Position numbers and translations under genes: made by a program
Shown here: in pieces, positions 8,551 to 37,752 of the stretch
Layout of the letters: each line of letters starts with the position of its first letter
How positions within the stretch are numbered: position 1 is the first letter of the stretch
Notes under the pieces: model-generated
Database searches by the model: none
Told to the model about the DNA's origin: nothing
What the model saw: the letters and a program-made list of their open reading frames with translations, nothing else
Source of the DNA: an uncultured Alphaproteobacteria bacterium
GTDB lineage: Bacteria > Pseudomonadota > Alphaproteobacteria > HIMB59
Assembly (NCBI GenBank): GCA_902518505.1
Contig: CABYGG010000009.1
Span: forward strand, 1-46,365
Direction of reading: 5' to 3'
DNA length: 46,365 bases

Positions 8551-8700
8551 GTTATCCACTTATTTTTTTTCAGATAAAGGACATCCATTTCTTTTTTGTT
8601 ATAAATTAATTACATATTTATTATTAACTAGATTCATTATTTATTAATGAAATTAGCTTTATAATAAGTTTTATTAATTTTTAAAAGATAGGATTTAAAT

Positions 8701-9771: not shown

Positions 9772-9785
9772 AATAAAATAAATAT

Positions 9786-10211: not shown

Positions 10212-10234
10212 TCAGGGATTATAATAAAATATAA

Positions 10235-12588: not shown

Positions 12589-12600
12589 TTCATAAACGCT

Positions 12601-12606
12601 AAGGAG
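12601..12606 (+). promoter_or_regulatory. Ribosome-binding site of serC
   Basis: AAGGAG lies 11 bases before the serC ATG. It is one of few strong Shine-Dalgarno sequences in the window and fixes the serC start at 12618. Confidence 0.7.
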
Positions 12607-12617
12607 AAATATTAATT

Positions 12618-15281: not shown

Positions 15282-15333
15282 GAGATTTAACTATTTGACT
15301 ATTTATAAGACAAAAGTATATATATTCAATACT

Positions 15334-15410
<77 letters not shown>

Positions 15411-15420
15411 AATAAAAAAA

Positions 15421-15729: not shown

Positions 15730-15754
15730 TAATTAAATATTCATTTTTTTTAAA

Positions 15755-15760
15755 TATAAT
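15755..15760 (+). promoter_or_regulatory. Possible -10 element before the livK-like gene
   Basis: A perfect TATAAT lies 44 bases before the ATG of the binding-protein gene. The hexamer 17 bases upstream (ATTAAA) is only a weak -35 match. In DNA this AT-rich a TATAAT can occur by chance; its place in a 74-base gap before a probably highly expressed gene is the main support. Confidence 0.35.
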
Positions 15761-15803
15761 ACTATTATCACTCCATAATTATTAATTAATAAGGGGGAAA
15801 GAA

Positions 15804-16979: not shown

Positions 16980-16989
16980 TTATTATTTT

Positions 16990-17016
16990 TTAGCCCCATC
17001 TTTTAGGTGGGGCTAA
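16990..17016. terminator. Shared hairpin between convergent liv genes
   Basis: TTAGCCCCA (16990-16998) pairs with TGGGGCTAA (17008-17016) around a nine-base loop that can itself pair two bases further. It is the most stable GC hairpin seen between genes here and sits between two convergent stop codons. Neither side has a clean T-run, so a bidirectional terminator or mRNA-end stabiliser is inferred. Confidence 0.65.
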
Positions 17017-17023
17017 GATGCTA

Positions 17024-19401: not shown

Positions 19402-20103
19402 TTAACCACCTAAAAAAGCCTTCCTTATCTCTTTGTCATTAAGAAGATAATCACCTTTGCCTTCGTAAGCATTTTTCCCTGTCACTAAAATATAACCTCG
19501 GTCAGATATTTCTAATGCTTGGCGGGCATTTTGCTCAACCATTAGTATAGCTATGTTTTGCTTTTTTATATTTAGTATGTGTTCAAATAATTCTGTCATT
19601 ATTACAGGTGAAACCCCTGCAGTTGGTTCGTCTAGCATTAAAACATTTGGCTCAGTCATTAAAGCTCTGGCGATTGCAACCTGCTGTCGTTGACCACCTG
19701 ATAATTCGCCTGCAAATTGATCTTTTTTCTCTTTAATTATAGGAAATAAATCATACATCTCCTCTAATCTCGTTGATATATTTGCATCATTTAAAAAGGC
19801 ACCCATCTCTAAGTTCTCTTTTACTGTTAATTCTGTGAATATATTCTTAATTTGCGGTACAAAGGAAATACCAAGCTTTATTCTATCTTGTGTTTTAAGC
19901 TTTGTGATATCTTGCCCATCAAGTACGACATTTCCATTTTTTAAGTCAAGTATACCAAGCATTGCTTTCATTGCTGTCGATTTACCAGCACCATTAGGTC
20001 CAAGAATGGATACAATTTCACCTCTGTTAACACTAAAAGAGCATTCCTCAATAATATTTACACCTCCATAACCACCTGTTAAATTTGAAGCAGAAAAAAA
20101 CAT
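19402..20103 (-). CDS. livF: Branched-chain amino acid ABC ATPase LivF-like
   Basis: A 233 aa ABC ATPase. Walker A GPNGAGKST, signature LSGGQRQQVAIARAL, Walker B VLMLDEPTAG and the switch region MVEQNA are intact. The MVEQNARQALEISDRGYIL end is typical of LivF. Works in the cytoplasm as a heterodimer with the LivG-like subunit encoded just upstream; the two genes share one base. Confidence 0.92.
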   Translation of the reverse strand: MFFSASNLTGGYGGVNIIEECSFSVNRGEIVSILGPNGAGKSTAMKAMLGILDLKNGNVVLDGQDITKLKTQDRIKLGISFVPQIKNIFTELTVKENLEMGAFLNDANISTRLEEMYDLFPIIKEKKDQFAGELSGGQRQQVAIARALMTEPNVLMLDEPTAGVSPVIMTELFEHILNIKKQNIAILMVEQNARQALEISDRGYILVTGKNAYEGKGDYLLNDKEIRKAFLGG

Positions 20104-21112: not shown

Positions 21113-21766
21113 TCAATTTTCAAAAATTGAAATATCTAATTTATTCAAACATTTTTTACAATAACTGAAATCATCGTCCACATGAAATAGTCCTGGAAAT
21201 GCAATACATTCAACGTTAGCCCTAAGAGCTGATAATGCACTATCAAGTGAATCTTCGATTGCGATACATTTATCTCGGTTTACGCCTAAATCATTAAGAG
21301 CCTTAATATAAATATCTGGTTCAGGTTTTACTTTTTTTATTAATTCATTGTTTCCAATAAATTCAAAATCTTTCTTTTCTATTTTTTTATTAAGAGTCTT
21401 AAAAATAGCATCAATATTTTCAATAGAAGTTGTTGACGCTAGACCAATTTTAATATTATGTAACTTAGCGTATTCAATTACCTCTAAAACTCCATCACGA
21501 GGATTAATATAATTATTTTTTAAATAATTATTAAAAAAAAGAGTTTTAATTTCTCTTACTTTTTTTGAGTCAACAAATTTTTTCTTTAAATTAGAAAAGT
21601 AATTGACTCTGTTAGCTCCACCTGATTTTTTTAGTAAATTCTTATAATTGTCTTTACTCCAATACCAATCTAAACCTAATGTTTTGAAAGCTTTATTAAA
21701 AGATTGCCTTTGAATATCTGATGTTTCAACTAAGGTCCCAATTGAACCAAATATGACTGCTTTCAT
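21113..21766 (-). CDS. HAD-family protein lacking the catalytic aspartates
   Basis: A 217 aa protein of HAD subfamily I (beta-phosphoglucomutase/CbbY-like). Motif I, normally FDxDGT with the Asp nucleophile, reads FGSIGT (residues 6-11), so both the nucleophile and the acid/base Asp are missing. The other motifs look intact: LASTTS (motif II), KKVKPEPDIY (motif III Lys) and IAIEDSLDSALSA (motif IV acids). Two in-frame starts exist (TTG at 21769, ATG at 21766); the ATG is preferred. It ends the minus-strand group SnoaL, HisD-like, ATPase, SDR, HAD. A binding or regulatory role, or unusual chemistry, is inferred. Confidence 0.8.
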   Translation of the reverse strand: MKAVIFGSIGTLVETSDIQRQSFNKAFKTLGLDWYWSKDNYKNLLKKSGGANRVNYFSNLKKKFVDSKKVREIKTLFFNNYLKNNYINPRDGVLEVIEYAKLHNIKIGLASTTSIENIDAIFKTLNKKIEKKDFEFIGNNELIKKVKPEPDIYIKALNDLGVNRDKCIAIEDSLDSALSALRANVECIAFPGLFHVDDDFSYCKKCLNKLDISIFEN

Positions 21767-21799
21767 CAAATTACTAATAAAATTTATTTAAAATAATTC

Positions 21800-22567
21800 T
21801 TATTGTGCTGTCCAACCACCGTCAATCACTAAAGATGTCCCTGTAATCATTGAAGATGCATTAGAAGCTAAATAAACTGTTGCAGTAGCAATATCACTTT
21901 CTTTAGCTAGTCGACCAAGAGGTATATTTTTTAATACCATATCTTTGAATTTTTTATCTTTAAAAAATTTTTTAACCATAGGTGTTTCTACAAAGGTTGG
22001 GCAAATAGAGTTTACACGAATATTTTTTGTAGCTAAATCTAAAGCCATACCTTTTGTTAAACCTTCTATTCCAAATTTTGACATATTATAGATGCTTCTT
22101 TTAGGCGCGCCAACTTTTCCCAATTGAGAAGACATATTAATTATGCTTCCCCCAATAGATTTTCTATTTTTGTTAGTCAACATTTTCTTGATTGATAATT
22201 GGGCAACATGAAAAGCTATTTTTAAATTAAGATCTATCATGTAATCCATATCTTCTCTTTTAATTTTAGTAAAATGCGCTGGACGATTTGTTCCTGCATT
22301 GTTGACAAGAATATCAATTTTTCTAATTTTTTTAAAAACAGCATTTAATTCCTCTATATTAAATAAATCACATTCAAAAAATGTACATTTTCTTTTATAT
22401 GAAATAATTTTTTTTTGCACGCCCAATAAATCTTTTTTAGTTCTACTTATGATTATTAAATCTGCACCTGCTTGTGCCAAAGCAATAGCACATGCTTTTC
22501 CGATACCTTTACCAGCTCCAGTTACAAGTGCTGTTTTATTTTTTAAATTAAAATTTTTCAAATACAT
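21800..22567 (-). CDS. Short-chain dehydrogenase/reductase (SDR)
   Basis: A 255 aa classical SDR: NAD(P)-binding TGAGKGIG near residue 16-23, NNAG, catalytic Ser in SIINMSSQLG, YNMSK with the catalytic Tyr and Lys, and a C-terminal SSMITGTSLVIDGGWTAQ. Such enzymes oxidise alcohol groups of sugars, polyols, steroids and hydroxy acids. The substrate is not readable, but its place beside a sugar-type ATPase and a HisD-like alcohol dehydrogenase suggests a step in the same breakdown pathway. Confidence 0.87.
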   Translation of the reverse strand: MYLKNFNLKNKTALVTGAGKGIGKACAIALAQAGADLIIISRTKKDLLGVQKKIISYKRKCTFFECDLFNIEELNAVFKKIRKIDILVNNAGTNRPAHFTKIKREDMDYMIDLNLKIAFHVAQLSIKKMLTNKNRKSIGGSIINMSSQLGKVGAPKRSIYNMSKFGIEGLTKGMALDLATKNIRVNSICPTFVETPMVKKFFKDKKFKDMVLKNIPLGRLAKESDIATATVYLASNASSMITGTSLVIDGGWTAQ

Positions 22568-22590: not shown

Positions 22591-23649
22591 TTATTTATTA
22601 AAAAGAATAATTTTTTCAAAGTTAAATTTAACATTTATAATATCACCAGTTTTAACTGAAATATCACCGTCGCATTCAACCACCACAGGTTCAACATGAC
22701 TATCTAAGTAGATAAAAGTACTTGAGCCAAGTTTTTCAACAACAAAAGCTTTGCTACGCCAGTTGTAATCATTGTCAAAACTTACGTGGATATTTTCAGG
22801 CCTTATACCAACAATGAGTTCTTGTTTTTTAAAATTTATATCATTTTCATAATTAAATATAAATTTGGAATTTAAAAATTCTATTTCAATATCATTTTTG
22901 TTTTTTGAAATAAATTTAGCTGGAATAAAATTCATTTTGGGTGAACCTATGAAACCAGCAACAAATAAGTTATTTGGTTTATTATATAATTCTAAAGGTT
23001 TGCCTAATTGAGAAATCTTGCCCTCATCCAGTACGACTATCTCGTCTGATAGTGTCATAGCCTCAGTTTGATCATGAGTTACATATATCATTGTTGCATC
23101 AAGTTGTTCATGTAATTTTGCCAACTCAACCCTCATTTGAACTCTTAAAGCAGCATCTAAGTTCGAAAGAGGTTCATCGAATAAAAAAACTTTCGGTTTT
23201 CTTGTTATAGCTCTTCCTATTGCAACACGTTGACGTTGCCCACCTGATAATTGTTTTGGTTTTCTATCTAACAATTCTTCGATTTGTAATATTTTAGCTG
23301 CCTCTTTAACTCTGCTATTTATCTCATCCTTTGATTTCTTTTCTATCTTTAATCCAAAAGCCATATTTTCAAATACAGTCATATGTGGATACAGAGCGTA
23401 AGATTGGAAAACCATAGCTATTCCTCTATCTCTTGGTGGTAAGTCATTAACAGATTTATTATTTATAAGAATGCTTCCTGAATTAATTTCCTCTAGACCA
23501 GCTATCATTCTTAAGAGTGTTGATTTTCCACAACCAGAAGGACCAACGAGTGTTGTAAAAGACTGATCTTTAATTTTTAGAGAAAAATCTTTGATAACAT
23601 GAGTTTTACCATAATATTTATTTATTGATTGTAATTCTATTTCAGCCAT
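22591..23649 (-). CDS. UgpC/MalK-type sugar ABC importer ATPase
   Basis: A 352 aa CUT1-family ATPase. Walker A GPSGCGKST (36-44), Q-loop VFQSYALYPHMTVFENMAFG, signature LSGGQRQRVAIGRA, Walker B VFLFDEPLSNLD and switch YVTHDQTEAMTL are all canonical. The C-terminal third is the OB/TOBE regulatory domain (VGIRPENIHV). MalK-type ATPases power importers of sugars, polyols and glycerol-phosphate compounds. No permeases are adjacent. The nearest matching pair, with a binding protein, is at 32747-35963 on the other strand, and the two probably form one transporter. Confidence 0.92.
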   Translation of the reverse strand: MAEIELQSINKYYGKTHVIKDFSLKIKDQSFTTLVGPSGCGKSTLLRMIAGLEEINSGSILINNKSVNDLPPRDRGIAMVFQSYALYPHMTVFENMAFGLKIEKKSKDEINSRVKEAAKILQIEELLDRKPKQLSGGQRQRVAIGRAITRKPKVFLFDEPLSNLDAALRVQMRVELAKLHEQLDATMIYVTHDQTEAMTLSDEIVVLDEGKISQLGKPLELYNKPNNLFVAGFIGSPKMNFIPAKFISKNKNDIEIEFLNSKFIFNYENDINFKKQELIVGIRPENIHVSFDNDYNWRSKAFVVEKLGSSTFIYLDSHVEPVVVECDGDISVKTGDIINVKFNFEKIILFNK

Positions 23650-25007: not shown

Positions 25008-26117
25008 TTATTTCTTATGAACTAATTTGAGCACATCTATTCCTAATTGAAGTAAAATATGGACAATATCTATTGGTACCCAATTTTCCCTAATAAGACC
25101 CTCATTATGTAAATAAAAATCCATTACTCTCATAGTAACTAATTTATTAGTAGGTTCATATCCTAGCCAATCACTTGAACCGTGTGTTGCTTGAATACTG
25201 TGCCAACCACCTGTCATTGAATAATTACCATCACCTATTTCAATGTAATGACCAATTTTCCAATAATTTCTTTCTTTAAATGTTAATCTAAATGGTAGCT
25301 GATGATGCTCAATAAAACCTTTTAAACCTCTAGCAGTGCCTATACCACAGGGTCCGTACCACATCATTTTCGGATGCCAATAATCTTTTTGAGGATGATT
25401 AATTAATTTCTGTCTAACACTATCTTTAGTAGCTCCAGTCTCAGTTTCTGGTTTTATATCTAAACTTCTTTGCATCGTAAGACCCTGATCAAGAGTTCTA
25501 GCTGATAAATCAGAGTCTAGGTTTTCAAAAGTTGTTCCGTCTCCAGTAATAGGTCCTGGCCACATTTCTTCTATACCCAAAGATGAATTAATAGGCCAAA
25601 AACCTGCTTGCCTTATGAAATCCATTATATCAATTAACACATGAGAATTGATTATTTTTTCATTTTCTATTTGATGAACTTCACAAATTCGTAAATGAAT
25701 TGTTTTACCATTGGAGGGAACTCCTAACCATGGATTGACAAAAGTGCCAGTCAAATGACCAACAGTTGAGACATAAACCCTATCTTGAAAACTTCCTCCA
25801 ATTATTAAATTATCTCTTCTCTCTAAATCTGGAAAAGAATTCAGTAATGGTTTCCAAAGGGTATTAATTATTTCATCAATGCCTTTTATATGATTTACAG
25901 GGTGGAATGCATAGATTTCAGCATTTTCATGATATGCATTCTTTATATTTTGACTTAAATCACTTTCTTTGGACTCAGAAATTTTTTTAAGAAGATTTTT
26001 AATTTTTTTTTTATTTAATATATTTTCTTTAGGGTCCAAATTTATAATTTTTGCCCCACTTTTAATTGGAATACCGGTATCAAAATTTTTAATTTCGCTC
26101 AAGTTATATTGCCTCAC
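25008..26117 (-). CDS. Double SnoaL-like protein, type A copy 1
   Basis: A 369 aa soluble protein with two NTF2/SnoaL-like halves. First half, about 60-180: [32 protein letters not shown] and a [11 protein letters not shown] strand. Second half, about 240-365: [27 protein letters not shown] and [17 protein letters not shown]. Members of this superfamily include polyketide cyclases, ketosteroid isomerases and dehydratases. The GTG at 26117 is the likely start. It is a clear paralogue of the gene at 29985. First gene of a minus-strand operon with the HisD-like enzyme, ATPase, SDR and HAD, and divergent from the bicupin. Confidence 0.75.
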
Positions 26118-26202
26118 CTATCTAATATAAATAAATATTACTTTGATTAACTTCATAATTTAAATAATATTTAACAAAATGAGGAAATTTAAATTCTAAT
26201 TA

Positions 26203-27177
26203 ATGACGCAGGATATTAACAGTCGTTTGGTAAAGTTTAATGAACTAATTCCAAGTAAAGTTCCATTTGTAGAAGGGAAGCTCAAAGGACATCAAGATAG
26301 ACTGAATTATTCTATAGTTGGCCCTGGAGTGAGTGAGGATACCAAGCAAAACGTTAAAATAGCTGAAGAACATGGCTTCAATATCGGTGCAGTAAGTGCC
26401 GCTCCAATGAATGGATCGGGACTTCATAGCCACACGACTGCAGAAGTATTTTTGATATTTTCAGGCTCTTGGCGCTTTTATTGGGGCACAGATGGTAAAG
26501 AGGGCGAAGTAGTTTTAAACAAGGGAGATGTTGCTTCATTTCCCACTAATATGTTTCGAGGATTTCAAAATGTAAGTGATGAAAACGCATTAATATTTGT
26601 TGTCCTTGGAGAAAATGATCCGGGTGTGATAACATGGACACCAAAAGTTTTAGAAAAAGCAAAAGAGTCTGGAATGGTTTTATTAAATGACAATACCTTA
26701 ATTGATCTTGATAAAAATAAAATACCAGACGGAAAAGCTGCCCTTGAACCTATTAAAGAAAAAGATCTAGAGTCTTTCGATCATTACACTTCTGAAGAAA
26801 TTGAAAAATATGTAATACGTTATGAAAATAAGGATAAATATTTAAAAGATGATGAGCATTATAACTCTAATTCAATTTTAAATTACCTTGACCATTTTAA
26901 TGTTCATAACAAAGATTTTGAGCCAAACATAGACCATAATACTGGCTTTGGTTTGACAATGTTAAAAGGTAAGAATGCTCACATTCATCCGTACACATTA
27001 AAAGAGTCTGAAGTTTATTTATGTTTAGAGGGTGAATGGGAAGTAACTTGCAATGATCAAAAAACCACAATTGGACCAAACGACTCTTTCTCGTCTCCAA
27101 GAGGATCAAATAGAAGTTTAAAAAATATTAGCAATCAAGAAGGAAGTATCTTTATTATACGACAAAAAAACCTCTAA
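26203..27177 (+). CDS. Two-domain cupin protein (bicupin)
   Basis: A 324 aa protein with two cupin barrels. The first holds HSHTTAEVF (H75, H77, E81) and then FPTNMFRGFQN, where the usual motif-2 His is an Arg. The second holds HIHPYTLKESEVY (H261, H263, E271) and SSPRGSNRSLKN. Three likely metal ligands remain in each domain. The middle part is charged and probably a linker. Bicupins include oxalate decarboxylases, gentisate dioxygenases, isomerases and lyases; this one cannot be assigned. It leads a + strand operon with a SnoaL, an RraA-like and a MetE-like gene. The 85-base gap before it must hold divergent promoters. Confidence 0.78.
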   Translation: MTQDINSRLVKFNELIPSKVPFVEGKLKGHQDRLNYSIVGPGVSEDTKQNVKIAEEHGFNIGAVSAAPMNGSGLHSHTTAEVFLIFSGSWRFYWGTDGKEGEVVLNKGDVASFPTNMFRGFQNVSDENALIFVVLGENDPGVITWTPKVLEKAKESGMVLLNDNTLIDLDKNKIPDGKAALEPIKEKDLESFDHYTSEEIEKYVIRYENKDKYLKDDEHYNSNSILNYLDHFNVHNKDFEPNIDHNTGFGLTMLKGKNAHIHPYTLKESEVYLCLEGEWEVTCNDQKTTIGPNDSFSSPRGSNRSLKNISNQEGSIFIIRQKNL

Positions 27178-27179
27178 TA

Positions 27180-28151
27180 ATGAAAGGTTTTGATAATAAA
27201 TTTTTAGATCTACCAGATTATATATTTAAAATAACATATCAAATTTGGGAAAATAAAGATGTTGAGTCAATTAGAGACTATTATGCTGAGGGTATTCCAG
27301 TTAGATCTCCAGACGGTGTAATATATGGCCCTGATGCTGTAGTGAAGGCTACTTATGCCACTTTGAATGAATTTCCAGATCGACAGTTATTAGGCGAAGA
27401 TGTTATTTGGATTGGTAATGAAGAACATGGATATTTATCATCACATAGAATTTTATCTAAGGCGACGCATTTAAATGATGGTATTTATGGAAAAGCTACT
27501 GGTAAAACTCTCAAGTATCGAGTAATAGCTGATTGTGCTTGCAAGAATAACCAGGTTTATGATGAATGGCTTGTAAGAGACCAGGGTGCTATTGTTCGGC
27601 AGTTAAATATTGACCCTAAAAAACATGCAGCAAAAGTAATTGAAAATCAAGGCGGTAAAGATAAATGCCCAGCTCCCTTTAATAACGATACCTCACATGA
27701 AGTAAAATATATACAAATACCGATCTCAACAAATAATACTGGAATAGATTATGCTAACATTTTAAAGGAAATATTTAATAATAATTTTAACATAATAGAT
27801 AAAGTTTATGATCGATCAGTCAATCAAGAACAGCCTGGAGGCAAGAAAGCATTAGGGGTAGATGAGGTAAAGAGTTTTTGGTCTTCACTAAGATCTATGT
27901 TTCCGGATTCAATTTTTAAAGTTGAACATGTATGCTATTTAGAGGAAAAAAATGAGTATAAAAAGGCATCCATCAGATGGTCACTAGAGGGAATTCATTC
28001 AGGACCTGGTTTATTTTCTAATCCTAGTAATGCAAATGTTCATATAATGGGAATATCTCAGGCTGAATTTGGTCCAAGAGGGATCAAAAATGAATGGGTT
28101 CTATTTGATGAAACAACAATTTGGAAACAAATTTTATTAAAAACTGGATAA
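27180..28151 (+). CDS. Double SnoaL-like protein, type B copy 1
   Basis: A 323 aa soluble protein with two NTF2/SnoaL-like halves. The first half opens DYIFKITYQIWENKDVESI and carries SPDGVIYGPDAVV, NEFPDRQLLGEDVIWIG and SSHRI. The second (about 190-320) carries ILKEIFNNNFNIIDKVYD, SMFPDSIFKVEHVCYLE and WSLEGIHSGPGLF. Such folds bind small hydrophobic or sugar-like acids in a conical pocket. Clear paralogue of the gene at 31085. It starts two bases after the bicupin stop and is followed three bases later by the RraA-like gene. Confidence 0.75.
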   Translation: MKGFDNKFLDLPDYIFKITYQIWENKDVESIRDYYAEGIPVRSPDGVIYGPDAVVKATYATLNEFPDRQLLGEDVIWIGNEEHGYLSSHRILSKATHLNDGIYGKATGKTLKYRVIADCACKNNQVYDEWLVRDQGAIVRQLNIDPKKHAAKVIENQGGKDKCPAPFNNDTSHEVKYIQIPISTNNTGIDYANILKEIFNNNFNIIDKVYDRSVNQEQPGGKKALGVDEVKSFWSSLRSMFPDSIFKVEHVCYLEEKNEYKKASIRWSLEGIHSGPGLFSNPSNANVHIMGISQAEFGPRGIKNEWVLFDETTIWKQILLKTG

Positions 28152-28154
28152 CAA

Positions 28155-28856
28155 TTGAAACTACTAACAAAAAGAGAAAAGAAAATTATTGAATACATAA
28201 GAAATTATGACACTCCAACTATCTCAAATTCACTAGAATTATTAGATCCAACTCTACGATCAAAAGGACACACACAAAAAACAATGCATTGTATTAATCC
28301 AAGTTTAAAACCAATCATTGGTTTTGCCAAAACAGCGATCATTACATCCAGAAAAAAGAAAAATACAAATATAATTAAAAATAGAGATAAATATTACGAG
28401 TATATGTTCGAAGGAAACTACCCAAAGATTTGTGTTATCGAGGATAAGGATAAGACTAATACAATTGGTGCATGGTGGGGTGAACTTAATGCATCTATAC
28501 ATTTAAATTTTGGATTTGTTGGAGCTATAACAAACGGAGCAATGAGGGACTTACAGGAGATAAATAGAAAGTTTCAAATATTAAGTGGTGAAATAAGAGT
28601 AGGGCATGGATACAATCAAATTCATAAAATCAATTGCAATGTTGATATTTTTAATATGAAAGTAAAACCTGACGACCTTATTCACGCAGACTTACACGGT
28701 GCTGTTATAATAAAAAGAGACTTTTTAATTGAATTACCATTGGCTATTAAAAAAATGATAAAAAAAGAAAAAATAATTTTTGATTTCTTTAGAAATAATA
28801 AAAAATTTTCGAAAAAACAATTTTTAGATAAGTATAAAAAATTTATCAATTCATAA
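28155..28856 (+). CDS. RraA-family protein (aldolase/decarboxylase-like)
   Basis: A 233 aa protein of the RraA/4-hydroxy-4-methyl-2-oxoglutarate aldolase fold. The core is seen as TIGAWWGELNASIHLNFG, GAITNGAMRDLQEI (R131-D132, the conserved Arg-Asp pair) and DDLIHADLHGAVII. Catabolic members cleave or decarboxylate oxo-acids with a divalent metal; others bind RNase E. The catabolic setting favours an aldolase or decarboxylase. The TTG at 28155 is the best start, since the next in-frame Met is at residue 44 and would remove the first part of the fold. Lies between SnoaL and MetE-like genes in a tight operon. Confidence 0.78.
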   Translation: MKLLTKREKKIIEYIRNYDTPTISNSLELLDPTLRSKGHTQKTMHCINPSLKPIIGFAKTAIITSRKKKNTNIIKNRDKYYEYMFEGNYPKICVIEDKDKTNTIGAWWGELNASIHLNFGFVGAITNGAMRDLQEINRKFQILSGEIRVGHGYNQIHKINCNVDIFNMKVKPDDLIHADLHGAVIIKRDFLIELPLAIKKMIKKEKIIFDFFRNNKKFSKKQFLDKYKKFINS

Positions 28857-28861
28857 TTATT

Positions 28862-29992
28862 ATGGCATCTAAAATTTTGACAACACACGTTGGTAGCTTA
28901 CCAAGATCCAAAGAACTATCAGAATATCTCTTTACCAAGGATAAGGGTGAAGAATACAACAAAAAATTATTTGGAAATATTTTAAGCTCAAATGTTGAAC
29001 AAATTGTAAAAAGACAACTTGAAGTTGGGTTAGATTTCATAAGTGACGGTGAGATGAGCAAGATTAGTTATGCTACTTATATTAAGGATAGAATTGATGG
29101 TTTTTCAGGAGAAAGTGAACGAAGAGCACCTGCCGATTTAGAAGATTTTCCAGACTATAAGGAAAAGTTAGCTATTAGTGGAGGAACACCTACTTATTCA
29201 AGACCATGTTGCACCAATGAATTAAAAATAAAAGATAATTTTTCTTTGTTAAATGATATTGAAAATTTTAGCAACGCCTTAAAAAAGTATGGTCATGCAA
29301 AAGCATTTATGAATGCAGCATCACCGGGTGTTATTAATGTTTTTATGCCAAATAAATTTTACGCTAGCGATGATGAATATTTAAATAAACTCTCTAGTAT
29401 TATGGCAAATGAGTATGAGCAAATTACTAATGCAAATATTCATGTTCAATTAGACTGTCCAGATTTAGCACTAGCTAGGCATATGAATTTTAAAGATCTA
29501 TCTGAGGAGGATTTTTTAAAAAAAGCTGAAATGCAAATTGAGTGTTTAAATCATGCTTTAAAAAACGTTGATATTGAAAAAACTAGAATGCATATTTGTT
29601 GGGGTAATTATGAGGGGCCACATACTCATGATATAGCTCTAAAAAAAATATTACCTATAATTTTAAAATCAAAAATTAAATATTTTCTAATTGAGTCATC
29701 CAATCCTCGACATGCACATGAGTGGAAAGTCTTTGAAGAAATTAAATTACCAAAAGATAAAGTGTTAGTACCTGGCGTAATTGACTCTACATCTAATTTT
29801 GTAGAACACCCAGAAGTAGTAGCTGAAAGATTAATTAAGTATTCAACAGTAGTGCCTAAAGAGCAATTAATGGCTGGAACTGATTGTGGCTTTAGTACTT
29901 TTGCAGGCTTTGGAAAAATTGATGAAAATATTTGTTATGAAAAACTTATTGCACTAGTGGAGGGTTCTAAACTCGCTTCTAAATTTATTTAG
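28862..29992 (+). CDS. MetE C-terminal-like (cobalamin-independent methionine synthase family) methyltransferase
   Basis: A 376 aa single-barrel protein of the UROD/MetE-like superfamily. It starts with THVGSLPRS, typical of the MetE C-terminal half. The zinc set used by MetE to activate a thiol is complete: H244 and C246 in MHICWGNYEGPH, E278 in LIESSNPR and C342 in GTDCGF. Full-length MetE is about 750 aa. Short forms include archaeal-type methyltransferases and epoxyalkane:CoM transferase. The protein should move an alkyl group to or from a thiol. Its position in a catabolic operon suggests demethylation or thiol addition to a pathway intermediate. Its end overlaps the convergent SnoaL gene by eight bases. 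Confidence 0.85.
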   Translation: MASKILTTHVGSLPRSKELSEYLFTKDKGEEYNKKLFGNILSSNVEQIVKRQLEVGLDFISDGEMSKISYATYIKDRIDGFSGESERRAPADLEDFPDYKEKLAISGGTPTYSRPCCTNELKIKDNFSLLNDIENFSNALKKYGHAKAFMNAASPGVINVFMPNKFYASDDEYLNKLSSIMANEYEQITNANIHVQLDCPDLALARHMNFKDLSEEDFLKKAEMQIECLNHALKNVDIEKTRMHICWGNYEGPHTHDIALKKILPIILKSKIKYFLIESSNPRHAHEWKVFEEIKLPKDKVLVPGVIDSTSNFVEHPEVVAERLIKYSTVVPKEQLMAGTDCGFSTFAGFGKIDENICYEKLIALVEGSKLASKFI

Positions 29993-30989
29993 AATTTTCA
30001 TTTTTATTTCTCTCAAGTAAATCAATACCCACACATTTTAAAAAATGAAGATGATCAATTAATATCCAATTTTCTGCTATTTTATCTCCATCTCTTCTAT
30101 AAAGGTCAACAACTCTCATCTCCCCAATAAGATTTGTGTCTTGTTTGAAACCCATGTAGTTACCTTTTGGTTTCATTTTTAAATTTGGCCAACCAAACCA
30201 TCCACCATAATTTCCCTCTGAGTTTTCAAGTATATGCCCAGAGAAATCTATAAAATCTAAATTATCCTCAAAAGGACCCGTGTGACCTTTTAAATAACCA
30301 TCATAGGTATATGATGCACCAATACCCCCTGGTCCCCACCATATCATGTCCTCATGCCAGTCTTTTTGTAAATCAGGAATTGTTGTACTCATCCCCTCAC
30401 CAATTAATCGATTTGCCATTCTCATTATAAGTTCAAGAGTTTTCTTTCCTTCTATTTCACTTTGTTTTTCAAAGCATAAACCCTGATGTGTTTTAGGTCC
30501 CGGATTAAAGCCAATCATCCCCGTTGACTCCGGGACAACTGATAAATTTAAATGTTGCATAAATTTTAAAATGTCTAAAAAAAAGGCACCTTCTTGTATT
30601 TTGTTATCCTCGACTTTATAAAACTCGCAATACCATAACATTACAGTCTTAAAATTTGGTTGAATGTCAAAAAAAGGAAAATTAAAACTTCCAAGCAAAT
30701 GTCCCATATTCACAACCCATTTTGAAGAATGATTGTCAACTAAATTTGTGCCAGCATAAAAGATATCCATTCTTCTTTGGATAGGCTTAAATGATTTTTT
30801 TATAGGAAACCAAAATTTTGTTACAAATTCTTCAATGCCTATTATCTCGTTAAAAGGATGTGTACATTTCATATTAAAATTATTAGATGTATACTTAGAA
30901 ATTATTTCAATTAAATTATCCTCATTAGCATTATCAACTTCATTTATAAAATTTAATACTAATGATTTTTCTTTCTGAAAATCGGACAT
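29985..30989 (-). CDS. Double SnoaL-like protein, type A copy 2
   Basis: A 334 aa protein with the same two-domain layout as the gene at 25008. Shared landmarks: HPFNEIIGIEEF, MGHLLGSFNFPFF and CEFYKVEDNKI in the first half, a Pro-Gly-Pro linker element (NPGPKTHQG), then WHEDMIWWGPGGIG, YLKGHTGPFEDN and RVVDLYRRDGDKIAENW. It is monocistronic on the minus strand, convergent with the MetE-like gene and divergent from the type B copy at 31085. Function unknown; an isomerase, cyclase or dehydratase is possible from the fold. Confidence 0.75.
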   Translation of the reverse strand: MSDFQKEKSLVLNFINEVDNANEDNLIEIISKYTSNNFNMKCTHPFNEIIGIEEFVTKFWFPIKKSFKPIQRRMDIFYAGTNLVDNHSSKWVVNMGHLLGSFNFPFFDIQPNFKTVMLWYCEFYKVEDNKIQEGAFFLDILKFMQHLNLSVVPESTGMIGFNPGPKTHQGLCFEKQSEIEGKKTLELIMRMANRLIGEGMSTTIPDLQKDWHEDMIWWGPGGIGASYTYDGYLKGHTGPFEDNLDFIDFSGHILENSEGNYGGWFGWPNLKMKPKGNYMGFKQDTNLIGEMRVVDLYRRDGDKIAENWILIDHLHFLKCVGIDLLERNKNENSK

Positions 30990-31084
30990 TAGTCTATTTA
31001 TAATACAAAAGAAAAAATAATAATATTCATTTTATATAAAATTATTGCTTTGAATTTTATTTAATAGTATTAGTAAATTTATTT

Positions 31085-32224
31085 ATGAAAAAAACTTTAA
31101 TTAAAGATTTAAAACCAATCCCTTTAAAAGATCATCATATGCCTAAAAATTTTGATATCTCTCTTAAATCTTATGGCGGAGGTGGTAATGCTAAATCTTT
31201 AAATCCAAAACCTAAAAATTTACCATTTCAATCAATGCAGGGATTTGAAAAACAATATAAAAATATAATTGATTATATTGTCAGAATTACCTACAGCATA
31301 TGGGAAGAAAAAAATATTGGTTATATATATGATACTTATAGCCCAAAATGTCGTGTTTGGGATGAACTTGGATTACAATTCGGATCTGAAAAAATAGTCT
31401 CTGATACAGTTCATACTAACAACGCCTTCCCAAATATTCGATTATATGCTGATGAGGTTATATGGGCAGGAGATGACAAAACTAGTTTTCATACTTCACA
31501 CAGAACTATAATTACGGGCACGAACACTGGTTATAGCAATTTTGCCAAACCAACAGGTAAATCAGTTAGGTTGTTCTGTATTGCAAACTGTGTAGCAAAA
31601 AATAATGAAATATATTACGAAAATGTTGTTTATGATACTGCAGGTTTAATAAAACAATTAGGCTTAGACTTAAATGAAGTAGCAAAACAAATTGCTAATA
31701 AAGGAAATATTGGTCCATTTGCTCCTGATTTTAGAAATTCAAAACCCAAAAGAAATTTTAAAAAGTTAAACCCCATAAGCTTCGCGATACCTGATAAAAT
31801 TAAAAACATTAGAGAATTTGTTCATGCGGTTTTTGATACTATTTGGAATAGAAGAAATTTTTCTGCTATTGATAGTGTTTATACAAAAAATATAAAATTT
31901 GAAGGATCAACTAGTCGAAAATTTGTTGGAATACCAAAGCTGAAACATTTTATAATTTCATTAATTGCATCATTTCCTGACCTTGCACTAAGTATTGAAG
32001 ATTTATATTGGATGGGAAATAGTAAAGACGGTTATTTAGTATCAATTCGTTGGGGCGCTGTGGGAACTCACAAAGGAAATGGAATTTATGGAAAACCATC
32101 TAATAAAGAGTGTTATCTTTGGGGCATTACACAATGGGAAATTAAAAATAATAAAATCACAAAAGAATGGACTGGTTTCAATGAATTGGCAATCTTAATA
32201 CAAATTTTAGGAGAAAAAAAATGA
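31085..32224 (+). CDS. Double SnoaL-like protein, type B copy 2, with N-terminal extension
   Basis: A 379 aa protein with two NTF2/SnoaL-like halves matching the gene at 27180: DYIVRITYSIWEEKNIGYI, ADEVIWAGDDKTSFHTSHRT and TGKSVRLFCIANCVAKNNEIYYENVVYDTAG in the first, and AVFDTIWNRRNFSAIDSVYT, SFPDLALSIEDLYWMG and IRWGAVGTHKGNGIYGKPS in the second. It carries about 50 extra N-terminal residues, basic and containing GGGGNAKS, with no signal peptide. Its stop overlaps the following single-domain SnoaL gene as ATGA, so the two are co-translated. Confidence 0.75.
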   Translation: MKKTLIKDLKPIPLKDHHMPKNFDISLKSYGGGGNAKSLNPKPKNLPFQSMQGFEKQYKNIIDYIVRITYSIWEEKNIGYIYDTYSPKCRVWDELGLQFGSEKIVSDTVHTNNAFPNIRLYADEVIWAGDDKTSFHTSHRTIITGTNTGYSNFAKPTGKSVRLFCIANCVAKNNEIYYENVVYDTAGLIKQLGLDLNEVAKQIANKGNIGPFAPDFRNSKPKRNFKKLNPISFAIPDKIKNIREFVHAVFDTIWNRRNFSAIDSVYTKNIKFEGSTSRKFVGIPKLKHFIISLIASFPDLALSIEDLYWMGNSKDGYLVSIRWGAVGTHKGNGIYGKPSNKECYLWGITQWEIKNNKITKEWTGFNELAILIQILGEKK

Positions 32225-32640
32225 ATTTAAATGAAAGTAAAATACTATTGCAAAATATGTACGATGCCTTGAATGCACAAGATTTAGAGGCACAGCATAA
32301 ATATTGGAATGATGATATGATTTGGCATGGACCTCCAGGTTTTGGTGATATACACGGTATTGAAAATTTTAAATATAAGGTTCTTAAACCTTTTTATGAA
32401 GCGTTTCCAGACTATCATGTAAAAAATGATATTGTTGTCGCAGAAGGTAATTGGATAAGTGCGACAGGTTATTTAACTGGCACTCATAGTGGAACTTATT
32501 TAGGTGTAAAACCAACTGGTAAGGCAATTAAAATGCAGTTTTCTGATTTTTGGACAATAGAAAATGGTAAATTTATGGATAATTATGTGATGGTCGATAA
32601 CCATGGTGTTTTCGAACAAATGGGCCTTAGTTTTAGATAA
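32221..32640 (+). CDS. Single-domain SnoaL-like protein
   Basis: A 139 aa single NTF2/SnoaL-like domain: helical start (LLQNMYDALNAQDLEAQHKY), MIWHGPPGFGDIHGIENF, FPDYHVKNDIVV, TGYLTGTHSGTYLGVKPTGK and a C-terminal MVDNHGVFEQMG. The WHGPPGFG patch matches the WWGPGGIG patch in the second half of the type A proteins, so it probably shares their active-site geometry. Resembles SnoaL-type polyketide cyclases in length. It overlaps the preceding type B gene by four bases. About 106 bases separate it from the ABC binding-protein gene. Confidence 0.8.
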   Translation: MNLNESKILLQNMYDALNAQDLEAQHKYWNDDMIWHGPPGFGDIHGIENFKYKVLKPFYEAFPDYHVKNDIVVAEGNWISATGYLTGTHSGTYLGVKPTGKAIKMQFSDFWTIENGKFMDNYVMVDNHGVFEQMGLSFR

Positions 32641-32746: not shown

Positions 32747-33982
32747 ATGAAAAAACTAATAATAGCTCTATTGATCTCTTTTGCATCTACTAGTGTTTTT
32801 GCAGGTAGCCATTCACCTTGTGGTGTAACAAGCGGTTCAATAAATATTTTAGCTAACGAATTTACTACATACAGAATTTTTATGGATGAAGTAAAAAGTT
32901 GTGCTGGACCAGAGGCGGATTTTAATGTCACGCACTCTGTTGACCATAATAAATTACAAGTAGCTGCTTTATCAGCAAACCCTGCTGAATTTTCTGCAAA
33001 ATTAGTTACTAATGGTTCAATTACACCTTTAATGAATGACGGTTTAATTCGTCCACTAGATGATTTAGTTGCAAAATATGGGTCAAACTTAAATGATAAT
33101 CAAAAGATTACAATTGATGGTAAGATTTATGCTGTAGCTTTTATGGCTAACGCACAACATCTTTGGTACAGAGAGAGTATTCTTAACGATTTAGGCATAG
33201 CTGTTCCTTCTACTTATGAAGAAGTAATTGCTGCTGCTGAAAAAATTAAAGCAGCTGGAGTAATGGAAAATCCATATGCAGGAGCTTTCAAATCAGGATG
33301 GAATCTTGGTCAAGAGTTTGTAAATATGTATCTTGGTCATGGTGGTGAGTTTTTTAAATCAGGTTCCGCGCAACCTAATGTGAATAATGAAAAAGGTGTT
33401 GCAGCACTGAATATGATTAAAAAATTAACTGAGTTAAGTAATCCTGACTTTTTAACACAAGATACAAACGCTGTTAAAGAAGAATGGGAGTCTGGTAATG
33501 TTGCATTAATGCATATTTGGAACTCAGGTGCAGCTTCTTTACTTGATGACGAAGGTGATCAAAATATTAAAGCTGATACAAGATTAGCCCCATCACCAAC
33601 TGTAGGCGGTGGTAGTAAACCTGCAACCACTCTTTGGTGGGATGGAATTGCAATTGCTACAAATACATCTGATGAAAATGCAGAGGCCTCATTTAGAGCT
33701 TTAGTTGGAGCCGCTTCATCAACTGATTTAGCCAATAACAACCCAAATGCAACTGTTTGGTTGATTAAAGGTTATACACCTGGTGATACAGCAGGGCCTG
33801 TTGTTGATGCAGCAAGTAGAGGCACAACACCTTACCCTAGTTTTCCACACATGAGCTTAATGCACGGCGCTTTAAGCACAGAACTTGTGGAATTTCTTCA
33901 AGGTAATGAGTCAGCCGAAAAAGCATTAGCTGATGTTGAAGCTGCTTACATAGCTAAGGCTACTGAGCAGGGTTTTTTATAA
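32747..33982 (+). CDS. Sugar-type ABC periplasmic binding protein (family 1)
   Basis: A 411 aa extracellular solute-binding protein. A signal peptide covers about 1-20 (MKKLIIALLISFASTSVFA before GSHSPCG). Typical features are an early NILANEFTTYRIF strand, the hinge region AVAFMANAQHLWYRESILNDLGIAVPSTYEEV, and GNVALMHIWNSGAASL. A GAGG ribosome-binding site stands before the ATG. It is followed by a hairpin terminator and then two permeases. The ligand is unknown; with a MalK-type ATPase it is likely a sugar, polyol or similar, probably the substrate of the surrounding catabolic genes. Confidence 0.9.
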   Translation: MKKLIIALLISFASTSVFAGSHSPCGVTSGSINILANEFTTYRIFMDEVKSCAGPEADFNVTHSVDHNKLQVAALSANPAEFSAKLVTNGSITPLMNDGLIRPLDDLVAKYGSNLNDNQKITIDGKIYAVAFMANAQHLWYRESILNDLGIAVPSTYEEVIAAAEKIKAAGVMENPYAGAFKSGWNLGQEFVNMYLGHGGEFFKSGSAQPNVNNEKGVAALNMIKKLTELSNPDFLTQDTNAVKEEWESGNVALMHIWNSGAASLLDDEGDQNIKADTRLAPSPTVGGGSKPATTLWWDGIAIATNTSDENAEASFRALVGAASSTDLANNNPNATVWLIKGYTPGDTAGPVVDAASRGTTPYPSFPHMSLMHGALSTELVEFLQGNESAEKALADVEAAYIAKATEQGFL

Positions 33983-36065: not shown

Positions 36066-36920
36066 ATGTCAGAAATTACAGCTAAACTAAAATTTACACA
36101 AGATACACTGATAAGATTAACAGGTAAGAAAGTTAGTCAAAAGGAAATAAAAGATCATTACCTTAAATTATTATCTCATTTAAAACATAAGAAAACACTT
36201 ATGATTGCAGGTTCCCAGGGTTCAGGCAAGTCTACTTTATCAGTTCTAATTAAAAAATTTTTTCTGAAATTTTACTCAAAGAATGTTGTTATATTAAGTA
36301 TTGACGATTTTTATCTATCATCTTTTCAAAGAAAACGATTAGCAAGAAAATTCAACACAGATTTATTTGAAACTAGAGGTGTACCTGGTACTCACAATTT
36401 AAAATTACTCTATAAAGTAACAAATAATTTAATGAAAAAGGAATTTCCAGTCTATGTTCCTGTATTTGATAAAGTAACTGACAACAAAAAAAATTATAAA
36501 AGAAAAATTAGTAAAGTAGATTTGCTAATTTTAGAGGGTTGGTGTGTTGGCTCAAAACCAATCGACTTGAAATATTTAAAAATGAACATTAATAATTTAG
36601 AAAAAAAGAATGACTCAAATTTAATTTGGAGAACTGCTTATAATAGTGCCTTAACTGATTACCAAAAACTTTTTAAAAAATTCAATTATTATTTATTTAT
36701 TAAATTACCAGATTGGGAATTTGTAATTGATTGGAAATATAAACAAGAATTAGATCTCCGATCATTAAAGAGTAGTATTCATCTAAAAAAAAAGCTCCAT
36801 CAATTTATCAAATATTATGAAAAATTATCTAAATGGATGTCATTAAAAACACCAAGTTATTGTAATGTTTTAATAACTTTAGATAAAAATCAATCAATTA
36901 AAAAAATTACATACAAATGA
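36066..36920 (+). CDS. D-glycerate kinase, GLYK-type P-loop kinase
   Basis: A 284 aa cytoplasmic kinase with Walker A GSQGSGKST (49-57), SIDDFYLS (79-85), TRGVPGTHN, VPVFDK and LILEGWCVGSKP. This motif series marks the plant/fungal-type D-glycerate 3-kinase group and its bacterial relatives. It phosphorylates D-glycerate with ATP, most likely to 3-phosphoglycerate. Its stop overlaps the phosphatase start as ATGA. In this operon it would recover the glycerate released by the phosphorylase at the operon end and return 3-phosphoglycerate to the synthase or to central metabolism. Confidence 0.85.
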   Translation: MSEITAKLKFTQDTLIRLTGKKVSQKEIKDHYLKLLSHLKHKKTLMIAGSQGSGKSTLSVLIKKFFLKFYSKNVVILSIDDFYLSSFQRKRLARKFNTDLFETRGVPGTHNLKLLYKVTNNLMKKEFPVYVPVFDKVTDNKKNYKRKISKVDLLILEGWCVGSKPIDLKYLKMNINNLEKKNDSNLIWRTAYNSALTDYQKLFKKFNYYLFIKLPDWEFVIDWKYKQELDLRSLKSSIHLKKKLHQFIKYYEKLSKWMSLKTPSYCNVLITLDKNQSIKKITYK

Positions 36921-37750
36921 AAAGATATCTTATTTTTACTGATCTTGATGGAACTTTACTTGATCATGAAAATTATTCCTTTGGAGCTAATAAGAAAACG
37001 ATATCTACAATTATCAATAACAAAAATGAAATTATTTTTAATACTAGTAAAACATACAGTGAATGTAAAAAATTACTTAAAGAATTGAAATTATCAAATA
37101 TGCCCTTTAGTACTGAAAATGGTGCTGTTATATATTTCCCTAAAATAAGATTTAATAAAATTAAAAACTCATCATCTTTTGAAAAATATTGGAAAGTAAG
37201 AATTGCCAAATTATCTTCAAAGATTTTGCATCAATTTTTAAAAAAGAAACAAAAAAAATATAATTTTTTAATTGCTCAAGATCTTTCATCAATTATTTTA
37301 AAAAGATACACGAATTTGAGTAATACAAATATGATGTTGGATCGTGAGGCAAGTCAAATTATTCTTTGGGACGATAATCTAACAAACTTAAAATTATTCA
37401 AAAAAGAGCTTAAATTTGAAAAAGACGGAATTTTAATAAAAGGTAGTAGGTTCATGCAAATTTCTTCTATATGCAACAAAAGAATAGCTAAAAAGCTAAT
37501 ATCTCATGTTTATGATATTCAATTTCGTGATAAATACTCAAGGAATACTATTGCTTTGGGTGATAGTAGAAATGATATTGACATGTTAAATTCTTGCAAA
37601 TACTCCTGCCTAATTAAAAATTCTTCTGGTGCATATCCAAAATTGCGTTCTAATAAAAAAAATGTTTTTAAATCATCTAAGTTAGCACCTGACGGTTGGA
37701 GTCAAGTTCTGTATAAATTAAATAAAACATTAGATAATAAGATTTTTTAA
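36917..37750 (+). CDS. Glucosyl-/mannosyl-3-phosphoglycerate phosphatase (HAD type IIB)
   Basis: A 277 aa HAD phosphatase with intact motif I FTDLDGTLLD (D9 nucleophile, D11), NTSKTYSEC (motif II) and ALGDSRNDIDML (motif IV). FSTENGAVIYFPK is characteristic of the mannosyl-3-phosphoglycerate phosphatase/YedP group. The neighbouring GpgS-like synthase makes glucosyl-3-phosphoglycerate the likely substrate, giving glucosylglycerate and phosphate. Two bases separate it from the synthase gene. Confidence 0.87.
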   Translation: MKRYLIFTDLDGTLLDHENYSFGANKKTISTIINNKNEIIFNTSKTYSECKKLLKELKLSNMPFSTENGAVIYFPKIRFNKIKNSSSFEKYWKVRIAKLSSKILHQFLKKKQKKYNFLIAQDLSSIILKRYTNLSNTNMMLDREASQIILWDDNLTNLKLFKKELKFEKDGILIKGSRFMQISSICNKRIAKKLISHVYDIQFRDKYSRNTIALGDSRNDIDMLNSCKYSCLIKNSSGAYPKLRSNKKNVFKSSKLAPDGWSQVLYKLNKTLDNKIF

Positions 37751-37752
37751 CC

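What the first reader, a model, noticed from the sequence alone, without database searches (positions are those of the whole stretch)
25008..32640. Five SnoaL-like genes with about nine domains in one catabolic cluster
Genes at 25008, 27180, 29985, 31085 (two domains each) and 32221 (one domain) share the NTF2/SnoaL fold pattern and alternate with a bicupin, an RraA-like protein and a MetE-like methyltransferase. They are flanked by a HisD-like dehydrogenase, an SDR and all parts of a sugar-type importer. A streamlined genome would not keep so many related small-pocket proteins without use. They may be successive isomerases, cyclases or dehydratases, or binding proteins, in an undescribed pathway.
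Basis: partly seen in the sequence, partly recalled or inferred. Interest (0 to 1): 0.8.

Follow-up and report, generated by a model that had tools for sequence, protein, structure and literature searches.

The report
Multi-SnoaL catabolic cluster of ocean bacteria
This stretch carries a conserved set of uptake and breakdown genes, built around five related small-pocket (SnoaL-type) proteins, that recurs in many marine bacteria and probably lets them eat a methylated compound that has not been identified.

Summary
In detail: five genes with nine SnoaL (PF07366) domains lie at the stated places, the only ones found in this 79.5%-complete genome. Models of two of the five proteins show paired NTF2/SnoaL folds. 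The genes are two duplicated two-domain families, here called SnoA and SnoB, plus one single-domain protein, Sno1. The cluster recurs: SnoA1, SnoB1, a bicupin, a MetE-like zinc protein and a sugar-type importer stay together in Pelagibacteraceae and in the window's order; in other Alphaproteobacteria an HpsN-like HisD and an SDR usually join. It splits into two modules. SnoA2, SnoB2 and Sno1 come and go with one type of binding protein (23 of 23 loci against 0 of 64), and similar genes stand with their own importer in Phaeobacter piscinae. It is patchy: 46 of 150 genomes of the order have no match. Best reading: an importer-linked entry module feeds a core that demethylates, isomerises, oxidises and perhaps aldol-cleaves a small methylated compound. 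Substrate and catalysis are inferred. Eight searches of an open-access library list no description of it. Cultured carriers make it testable.

The parts
21113..21769 (-). HAD-family phosphatase-like protein; a relative is in 68 of 80 MetE-anchored loci
   Evidence: PF13419 80.4 bits; tally
21800..22567 (-). SDR dehydrogenase
   Evidence: PF13561 196.8 bits; 22 of 80 loci, 15 of 20 distant alphaproteobacterial loci
22591..23649 (-). ABC importer ATPase (MalK/UgpC type)
   Evidence: ABC_tran 124.9 bits plus OB_MalK 38.4 bits
23680..25005 (-). HisD-family dehydrogenase of the sulfopropanediol-dehydrogenase (HpsN) branch
   Evidence: phmmer to PDB: HpsN 5.6e-111 against 1.5e-71 for the best histidinol dehydrogenase; a separate, better-scoring HisD is elsewhere in the genome
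25008..26117 (-). SnoB1, two SnoaL domains (core module)
   Evidence: PF07366 65.3 bits, 2 stretches; AlphaFold pLDDT 88.8; 71 of 80 loci
26203..27177 (+). bicupin (core module)
   Evidence: Cupin_2 64.5 bits, 2 stretches; 76 of 80 loci, 20 of 20 distant loci
27180..28151 (+). SnoA1, two SnoaL domains (core module)
   Evidence: PF07366 73.3 bits, 2 stretches; AlphaFold pLDDT 92.2; 79 of 80 loci
28155..28856 (+). RraA-like protein, possible aldolase; missing from many versions
   Evidence: PF03737 62.1 bits; 6 of 80 loci, 6 of 20 distant loci
28862..29992 (+). MetE-like zinc methyl/alkyltransferase, catalytic half only (core module)
   Evidence: PF01717 51.7 bits; H244, C246, E278, C342 align with a solved MetE-type chain, 1ypx and are invariant in alignment A3
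29985..30989 (-). SnoB2, two SnoaL domains (importer-linked module)
   Evidence: PF07366 38.3 bits, 2 stretches; 29% identical to SnoB1, E 1e-46
31085..32224 (+). SnoA2, two SnoaL domains (importer-linked module)
   Evidence: PF07366 78.0 bits, 2 stretches; 33% identical to SnoA1
32221..32640 (+). Sno1, one SnoaL domain (importer-linked module)
   Evidence: PF07366 86.6 bits; aligned to IdmH and an ester cyclase of known structure
32747..33982 (+). solute-binding protein of a sugar-type ABC importer (importer-linked module)
   Evidence: SBP_bac_1 75.0 bits
34053..35081 (+). importer permease 1
   Evidence: BPD_transp_1 49.9 bits
35082..35963 (+). importer permease 2
   Evidence: BPD_transp_1 57.3 bits

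Best explanation
This is a catabolic gene cluster made of two modules. Module 2 (sugar-type importer with SnoA2, SnoB2 and Sno1) takes up a particular compound and rearranges or opens it into a common intermediate. Module 1 (SnoB1, bicupin, SnoA1, MetE-like, with HpsN-like HisD, SDR and RraA in fuller versions) breaks that intermediate down: the MetE-like zinc protein takes a methyl group off (to homocysteine or another thiol, possibly through folate), the SnoaL enzymes do cofactor-free proton-transfer steps (isomerisation, dehydration, or retro-aldol ring opening), the bicupin does an isomerase or oxygenase step, HisD and SDR oxidise alcohols, and RraA cleaves to central metabolites. Shown: gene content, predicted folds of two proteins, zinc-site residues, conservation, co-inheritance and joint swapping. 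Inferred: that the SnoaL proteins are enzymes, the order of steps, the methyl transfer, and that the substrate is a small methylated polyol-, cyclitol- or enone-like compound.
For: All nine SnoaL domains found in the genome lie in one cluster. Of 80 loci anchored on the MetE-like gene: SnoA1 in 79, binding protein in 77, bicupin in 76, SnoB1 in 71. In 20 distant alphaproteobacterial loci anchored on SnoA: bicupin 20, HisD 17, MetE-like 17, SnoB 16, binding protein and permease 2 15, SDR 15, ATPase and permease 1 14, Sno1 13, RraA 6. Co-occurrence p 8e-35, and within 12 kb in 19 of the 22 genomes outside the window's order that hold both. Module swap: 23 of 23 loci whose binding protein is at least 75% identical hold SnoA2+SnoB2+Sno1, 0 of 64 others hold any of them at the identities set; on a quick tree of 38 MetE-like proteins the trait needs 4 changes, 3 forced by starred branches. 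Relatives of module 2 stand without the core in the stretch read of Phaeobacter piscinae. Named roseobacters carry the fuller set with alpha/beta hydrolase and RraA-family genes. MetE-like relatives in Croceicoccus and Novosphingobium lie among folate C1 and aminomethyltransferase-family genes beside protocatechuate-cleavage genes; in Sphingobium SYK-6 O-demethylation feeds methyl-folate and methionine (PMC6888825, passages). dN/dS 0.03-0.17.
Against: No substrate, activity or expression was measured. The cluster is patchy: 46 of 150 genomes of the order have no match to SnoA2 at E 0.001, and a 99%-complete genome of the same genus (G002) has neither family; in the class 29 of 385 have SnoA. 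SnoA and SnoB occur without annotated MetE-like, HisD or cupin genes nearby in Vibrio pelagius. RraA is missing from most loci (present in 6 of 80 and 6 of 20). In the 13 Pelagibacteraceae loci printed, any HisD nearby is of another type (45-51% identical) and no SDR was marked. SnoA2 domain 2 has Asn where the other eight domains have Asp (by eye). MetE-like proteins also occur away from annotated SnoaL genes in four haloarchaea and in Rhodococcus, so the methyl role need not be tied to this pathway. The swap evidence comes from related genomes and few tree changes.
Confidence: 0.6

Rival explanations
1. The SnoaL proteins are not enzymes but intracellular binding or carrier proteins (or parts of one multi-domain complex) that hold a scarce imported compound for the other enzymes.
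For: NTF2 folds are often only binding scaffolds (recalled). SnoA/SnoB genes lie directly beside importer genes in several records, and in the stretches read of Vibrio pelagius and Phaeobacter piscinae the importer, SnoaL genes and (in Phaeobacter) a LacI regulator are the only clear parts.
Against: The aspartate aligned with IdmH in Sno1 has a counterpart in 8 of 9 domains (read by eye). Five divergent copies at dN/dS 0.03-0.17 fit separate reactions better than redundant storage.
Confidence: 0.17
2. The cluster handles a sulfonate or other sulfur compound: the HisD-like enzyme is a dihydroxypropanesulfonate-type dehydrogenase and the rest prepares a sulfonated or methylsulfonium substrate.
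For: HisD is closest to sulfopropanediol 3-dehydrogenase in the PDB. Relatives lie near SBP56-type genes (methanethiol oxidase-like, recalled) in Marinovum algicola and Phaeobacter piscinae, and near DmdA in Marinovum.
Against: SBP56 was seen in 2 and DmdA in 1 of the 11 SnoA-bearing plasmid regions read. The Pfam scans of the cluster show no sulfonate transporter or sulfite-releasing enzyme. HisD is of another type or missing in many loci.
Confidence: 0.12
3. The MetE-like and SnoaL genes are an accidental neighbourhood: MetE-like makes methionine for the cell, and the importer serves an ordinary sugar.
For: It is the only PF01717 protein found in the genome, and the importer looks like a generic sugar importer.
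Against: Three homocysteine S-methyltransferase-family proteins are elsewhere in the genome. MetE-like stays with SnoA1 in 79 of 80 loci and with SnoA in 17 of 20 distant loci.
Confidence: 0.05

Closest known systems
SnoaL-like polyketide cyclases (SnoaL, AknH, IdmH; PF07366)
   Same: HMM family, predicted fold, and an aspartate in Sno1 that aligns with one in IdmH
   Different: Two domains per chain in four of the five genes, several copies in a catabolic, importer-linked cluster, no polyketide synthase in the scans of the cluster and part of its flanks
Two-domain polyether epoxide hydrolases MonB and Lsd19
   Same: Two NTF2-type domains in one chain; best full-length Foldseek match of SnoB1 (E 2e-8)
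   Different: 11% identity, whole-chain TM about 0.3; their catalytic residue pairs were not checked
HpsN, sulfopropanediol (DHPS) 3-dehydrogenase
   Same: HisD family, closest solved relative of the cluster HisD
   Different: Substrate untested; the SnoaL/bicupin/MetE-like neighbours are not part of the DHPS route as I recall it
O-demethylation / C1-folate clusters of sphingomonads (aminomethyltransferase family, MetF, FolD, PurU)
   Same: A MetE-like homologue 44-47% identical sits in such clusters with a small NTF2-family gene
   Different: No aminomethyltransferase-family or aromatic ring-cleavage gene among the window's cluster genes
Sugar- and inositol-type catabolic operons with CUT1 importers (recalled)
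   Same: Sugar-type importer plus dehydrogenases, often a LacI regulator
   Different: As recalled, their dehydratase and isomerase steps use TIM-barrel or GFO proteins, not SnoaL arrays

Membership tests
SnoaL-like family (PF07366) | Sequence score over the curated cut-off of 28.4 bits | tested here: met
   65.3, 73.3, 38.3, 78.0 and 86.6 bits for the five proteins; as single domains 6 of 9 pass
SnoaL-like family (PF07366) | NTF2/SnoaL alpha+beta barrel fold | tested here: met
SnoaL-like family (PF07366) | Catalytic aspartate near the end of the domain | tested here: inconclusive
   Asp in 8 of 9 domains, Asn in SnoA2 domain 2 (by eye); aligned to IdmH for Sno1 only. That this Asp is the catalytic one is recalled
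HpsN (sulfopropanediol 3-dehydrogenase) | Closer to HpsN than to biosynthetic HisD | tested here: met
   374.8 bits against 244.9 bits; a separate HisD at 490 Pfam bits is in the genome
HpsN (sulfopropanediol 3-dehydrogenase) | Oxidises dihydroxypropanesulfonate | not testable with these tools
   Needs an enzyme assay
MetE (cobalamin-independent methionine synthase) | Zinc site His-x-Cys, Glu, Cys | tested here: met
   H244, C246, E278, C342 aligned to 1ypx, invariant in A3; that these are the zinc ligands is recalled
MetE (cobalamin-independent methionine synthase) | Full-length two-half protein of about 750 residues, equivalog score | tested here: not met
   376 residues; 100.8 bits against a cut-off of 406 for the best NCBIfam model PRK04326, 32.6 against 930 for TIGR01371
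RraA-type aldolases (HMG/CHA aldolase) | Equivalog score for the aldolase models | tested here: not met
   TIGR02798 19.5 bits against 304.5, PRK09262 22.1 against 179; the general family PF03737 is met, 62.1 against 24.5
CUT1 sugar ABC importer | Binding protein, two permeases and a MalK-type ATPase | tested here: met
   the ATPase lies apart at 22591-23649
MonB/Lsd19 epoxide hydrolases | Catalytic residue pairs of each domain and epoxide substrate | not tested
   Only overall architecture compared

The most novel reading that the evidence does not exclude
An array of cofactor-free SnoaL-fold enzymes is itself the backbone of a new kind of degradation route: paired two-domain SnoaL proteins carry out successive proton-transfer and ring-opening steps on a methylated cyclohexenone- or cyclitol-like sunscreen or osmolyte (for example a gadusol/mycosporine-type compound), with the methyl group captured as methionine by the MetE-like protein, the hydroxymethyl group oxidised by the HpsN-like dehydrogenase and the tertiary-alcohol acid cut by RraA; the route, in fuller or leaner form, would be carried by Pelagibacteraceae, the window's order and roseobacters.
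Probability: 0.12. Interest if true: 0.9.

Novelty: new variant of a known kind. Interest (0 to 1): 0.66.

Why it matters
Pelagibacteraceae and their look-alikes are among the most abundant cells in the sea and keep few genes (recalled); a conserved importer-plus-SnoaL set in them points to a widespread dissolved compound whose use is unknown. The split into importer-linked and core modules predicts which proteins act first. Named isolates can be tested: Ruegeria conchae, Marinovum algicola DG 898 and Octadecabacter arcticus 238 (fuller set), Ruegeria sp. THAF33 (SnoA and MetE-like hits on one plasmid; region not read), and Vibrio pelagius ATCC 25916 (importer and SnoaL genes only).

Tried and rejected
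Chance clustering was rejected. A biosynthetic HisD or polyketide cluster was rejected: a better HisD lies elsewhere, and the Pfam and NCBIfam scans of the cluster and part of its flanks show no polyketide synthase. A fixed five-protein complex was considered because Halobellus limi has four two-domain and one single-domain SnoaL genes beside a MetE-like gene, but there the make-up is four SnoB plus one SnoA-type domain, unlike the window, and 4 of the 5 haloarchaeal MetE-like neighbourhoods read hold no annotated SnoaL gene.

Led nowhere: scan of viral contigs with SnoA1 (no relative); eight searches of the open-access library for the cluster or a substrate. Papers opened for passages only: PMC10308909, PMC9040609, PMC4103551, PMC6888825, PMC8091115 (102, none of the terms found); none of the passages seen describes the cluster. 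All other papers were seen as search listings. Promoter-like and terminator-like patterns were no more frequent than in shuffles. SnoaL2 and AclR have Asn where Sno1 has Asp, so I do not favour their role. Pantothenate, methylated inositol and methylthioribose were considered as substrates from memory and left open; nothing here tests them.

First-pass ORF calls in G+C-rich loci sometimes chose a wrong frame; counts and therefore use tblastn, and one search uses annotated coordinates. The 80-locus tally uses ORF calls in A+T-rich loci. Of the 25 genomes outside the window's order, 20 loci were fetched; G232, G311, G340, G394 and G408 were left out. In one search, presence meant SnoA2 or Sno1 over 55% and SnoB2 over 50% identity; 5 of 92 loci had no binding-protein match over 300 residues and were dropped; three loci were fetched twice (L030=L054, L031=L068, L032=L075, by equal contig length), and without them the counts are 21 of 21 and 0 of 63. 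One search used SnoA and SnoB places that I copied in by hand, of SnoB only a part.
Full report
Observation. Pfam gives SnoaL (PF07366) scores of 65.3, 73.3, 38.3, 78.0 and 86.6 bits against a cut-off of 28.4, with two stretches in each of four proteins and one in the last. A search of the whole genome in which the window lies (1.21 Mb, 79.5% complete) finds nine SnoaL matches, all in this cluster. The neighbours are also right: SDR, MalK-type ATPase, HisD-like dehydrogenase, bicupin, RraA-like, MetE-like, binding protein and two permeases.

Selection. In comparisons with L073, L053, L052 and L037, dN/dS of the five SnoaL genes lies between 0.03 and 0.17, in the range of the other cluster enzymes; the importer genes are lower, 0.02-0.05 (Nei-Gojobori, few changes in the close pairs). 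In the alignments and the window sequence an aspartate at the end of the last strand is kept in 8 of 9 domains; SnoA2 domain 2 has Asn. For Sno1 this Asp aligns with Asp in IdmH and in the ester cyclase 8ysb, and with Asn in SnoaL2 and AclR. That it is the catalytic acid is recalled, not tested.

The window's organism. The nearest named record is an uncultured alphaproteobacterial single cell (AG-910-G06, 99% in the MetE-like protein). I take the order to be the AEGEAN-169/HIMB59 group; this is recall, not a test. SnoA2 as query matched 104 of 150 genomes of the order at E up to 0.001, 12 of 20 among those at least 90% complete and at most 5% contaminated; matches to SnoA1 are included. So the cluster is common but not universal: G002, same genus and 99% complete, has neither SnoA nor SnoB.

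Conservation near. Of these, 53 (L077-L093, L095-L130) bear Pelagibacteraceae or Candidatus Pelagibacter titles, 26 (L051-L076) other proteobacterial titles, and L094 is titled Euryarchaeota. In the 80 loci: MetE-like 80 (by construction), SnoA1 79, binding protein 77, permease 1 77, bicupin 76, permease 2 76, SnoB1 71, HAD 68, HisD of either type 58, ATPase 29, SDR 22, SnoB2 18, SnoA2 17, Sno1 17, RraA 6. Some loci are cut by contig ends. In the 13 Pelagibacteraceae loci whose gene order I printed, the core reads SnoB1, bicupin, SnoA1, MetE-like, binding protein, two permeases; any HisD nearby is only 45-51% identical, and no SDR was marked.

Conservation far. In 385 genomes of the class, SnoA is in 29 (E up to 1e-20), SnoB in 28 (E up to 1e-15) and both in 26 (p 8e-35; without the window's order 22, p 2e-30). 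SnoA alone: G163, G378, G394; SnoB alone: G482, G509. In 19 of the 22 genomes outside the order that hold both, the two lie within 12 kb; in the other three they are on different contigs. In 20 loci fetched from the 25 SnoA-bearing genomes outside the order: SnoA 20 (by construction), bicupin 20, HisD 17, MetE-like 17, SnoB 16, binding protein 15, permease 2 15, SDR 15, ATPase 14, permease 1 14, Sno1 13, RraA 6.

Named relatives. A tblastn of SnoA1 against 72,556 plasmid records found 52 with a match; I read 11 of these regions. Ruegeria conchae, Octadecabacter arcticus and Marinovum algicola carry the fuller set with a LacI (in Marinovum just 'transcriptional regulator'), an alpha/beta hydrolase and an RraA-family gene; Marinovum has no annotated SDR there. 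The stretch of Vibrio pelagius has the importer with one SnoA and three SnoB but no annotated HisD, MetE-like or cupin, beside sarcosine oxidase genes. Phaeobacter piscinae has SnoB2-like (42%), SnoA2-like (60%), importer and Sno1-like (57%) genes and a LacI without the core. Phaeobacter inhibens DOK1-1 shows only an ATPase, a SnoB-like and a SnoA gene between transposase genes. Remote SnoA relatives (about 29-37%) in Sinorhizobium, Roseibium, Alloyangia, Deinococcus and Priestia lie in clusters that variously hold HisD, SDR, LacI, cupin, RraA or another aldolase, alpha/beta hydrolase and an amidase or other C-N hydrolase.

Two modules. Among 87 loci with a full binding-protein match (of 92; three fetched twice), all 23 whose binding protein is at least 75% identical hold SnoA2, SnoB2 and Sno1, and none of the other 64 holds any of the three at the identities set. 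On a quick tree of 38 MetE-like proteins the trait changes at least 4 times, 3 forced by starred branches, so the linked genes seem to have come or gone together more than once. This, with the set in Phaeobacter piscinae, ties SnoA2, SnoB2 and Sno1 to the imported substrate, and SnoA1, SnoB1, bicupin and MetE-like to a later, shared stage. The order of stages is inference.

The other enzymes. The HisD-like protein matches sulfopropanediol 3-dehydrogenase (374.8 bits) far better than any solved histidinol dehydrogenase (244.9 bits at best), and the genome has another HisD scoring 490 Pfam bits. The MetE-like protein is the catalytic half only (376 residues); H244, C246, E278 and C342 align with 1ypx and are invariant in A3. 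It is the only PF01717 protein found in the genome, while three homocysteine S-methyltransferase-family proteins lie elsewhere. Its 44-47% relatives in Croceicoccus marinus and Novosphingobium pentaromativorans sit with aminomethyltransferase-family, methylenetetrahydrofolate reductase, PurU, FolD and protocatechuate-cleavage genes. In Sphingobium SYK-6 LigM and DesA pass methoxy methyl groups to folate, and methyl-folate feeds methionine (PMC6888825, passages). In the archaeon Halobellus limi a MetE-like gene follows five SnoaL genes; in the four other haloarchaeal regions read it does not, nor in Rhodococcus. So a methyl-handling role is likely but not proven.

Explanation. An importer-linked entry module and a shared core degrade a small methylated compound, with SnoaL proteins as cofactor-free enzymes. 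Confidence 0.6 for this outline; the substrate is open. A gadusol- or mycosporine-type compound would fit the fuller enzyme set (methyl ether, enone, hydroxymethyl next to a tertiary alcohol), but this is reasoning from recalled chemistry, at about 0.12.

Novelty. Eight searches of an open-access library list no paper on such a cluster; subscription papers are not held, so it may be described elsewhere. The parts are known families; the multi-SnoaL catabolic arrangement with module exchange appears new.

Noticed in passing
window 36066-40690: A kinase-like, phosphatase, glycosyltransferase-like and GH13-like gene run that looks like glucosylglycerate synthesis and phosphorolysis (names recalled; the Pfam hit of the glycosyltransferase is below its cut-off).
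   Followed up: no
window 15280-15729: The listed reading frame overlaps a tRNA-Pro gene at 15334-15410; the true protein start is probably downstream.
   Followed up: partly
L033 (G079) 4456-19899: Several cluster genes are broken over several frames in this genome, either decay or assembly error; in two other fetched genomes of the genus (L034, L037) they are whole.
   Followed up: no
L040 1782-5352, L038 15440-17144: Sulfate-activation-like genes (CysQ, CysD and CysNC-like, named by eye) lie near the HisD end of the cluster in some relatives; link to the pathway unknown.
   Followed up: no
L094: A contig of a record titled Euryarchaeota archaeon ARS96 carries an 82% identical MetE-like protein, most likely a binning error from a bacterium of the window's order.
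   Followed up: no
L161 8998-10514 and L164 8995-10520: In two sphingomonads the MetE-like homologue is followed by a small NTF2-family gene and an IclR regulator inside a C1/aromatic cluster; the small NTF2 protein shows no BLAST match to the window's proteins at E 0.001.
   Followed up: partly
L163 2747-9140: The haloarchaeon Halobellus limi has four SnoB-type and one SnoA-type SnoaL genes next to a MetE-like gene, suggesting that the partnership reaches archaea.
   Followed up: partly
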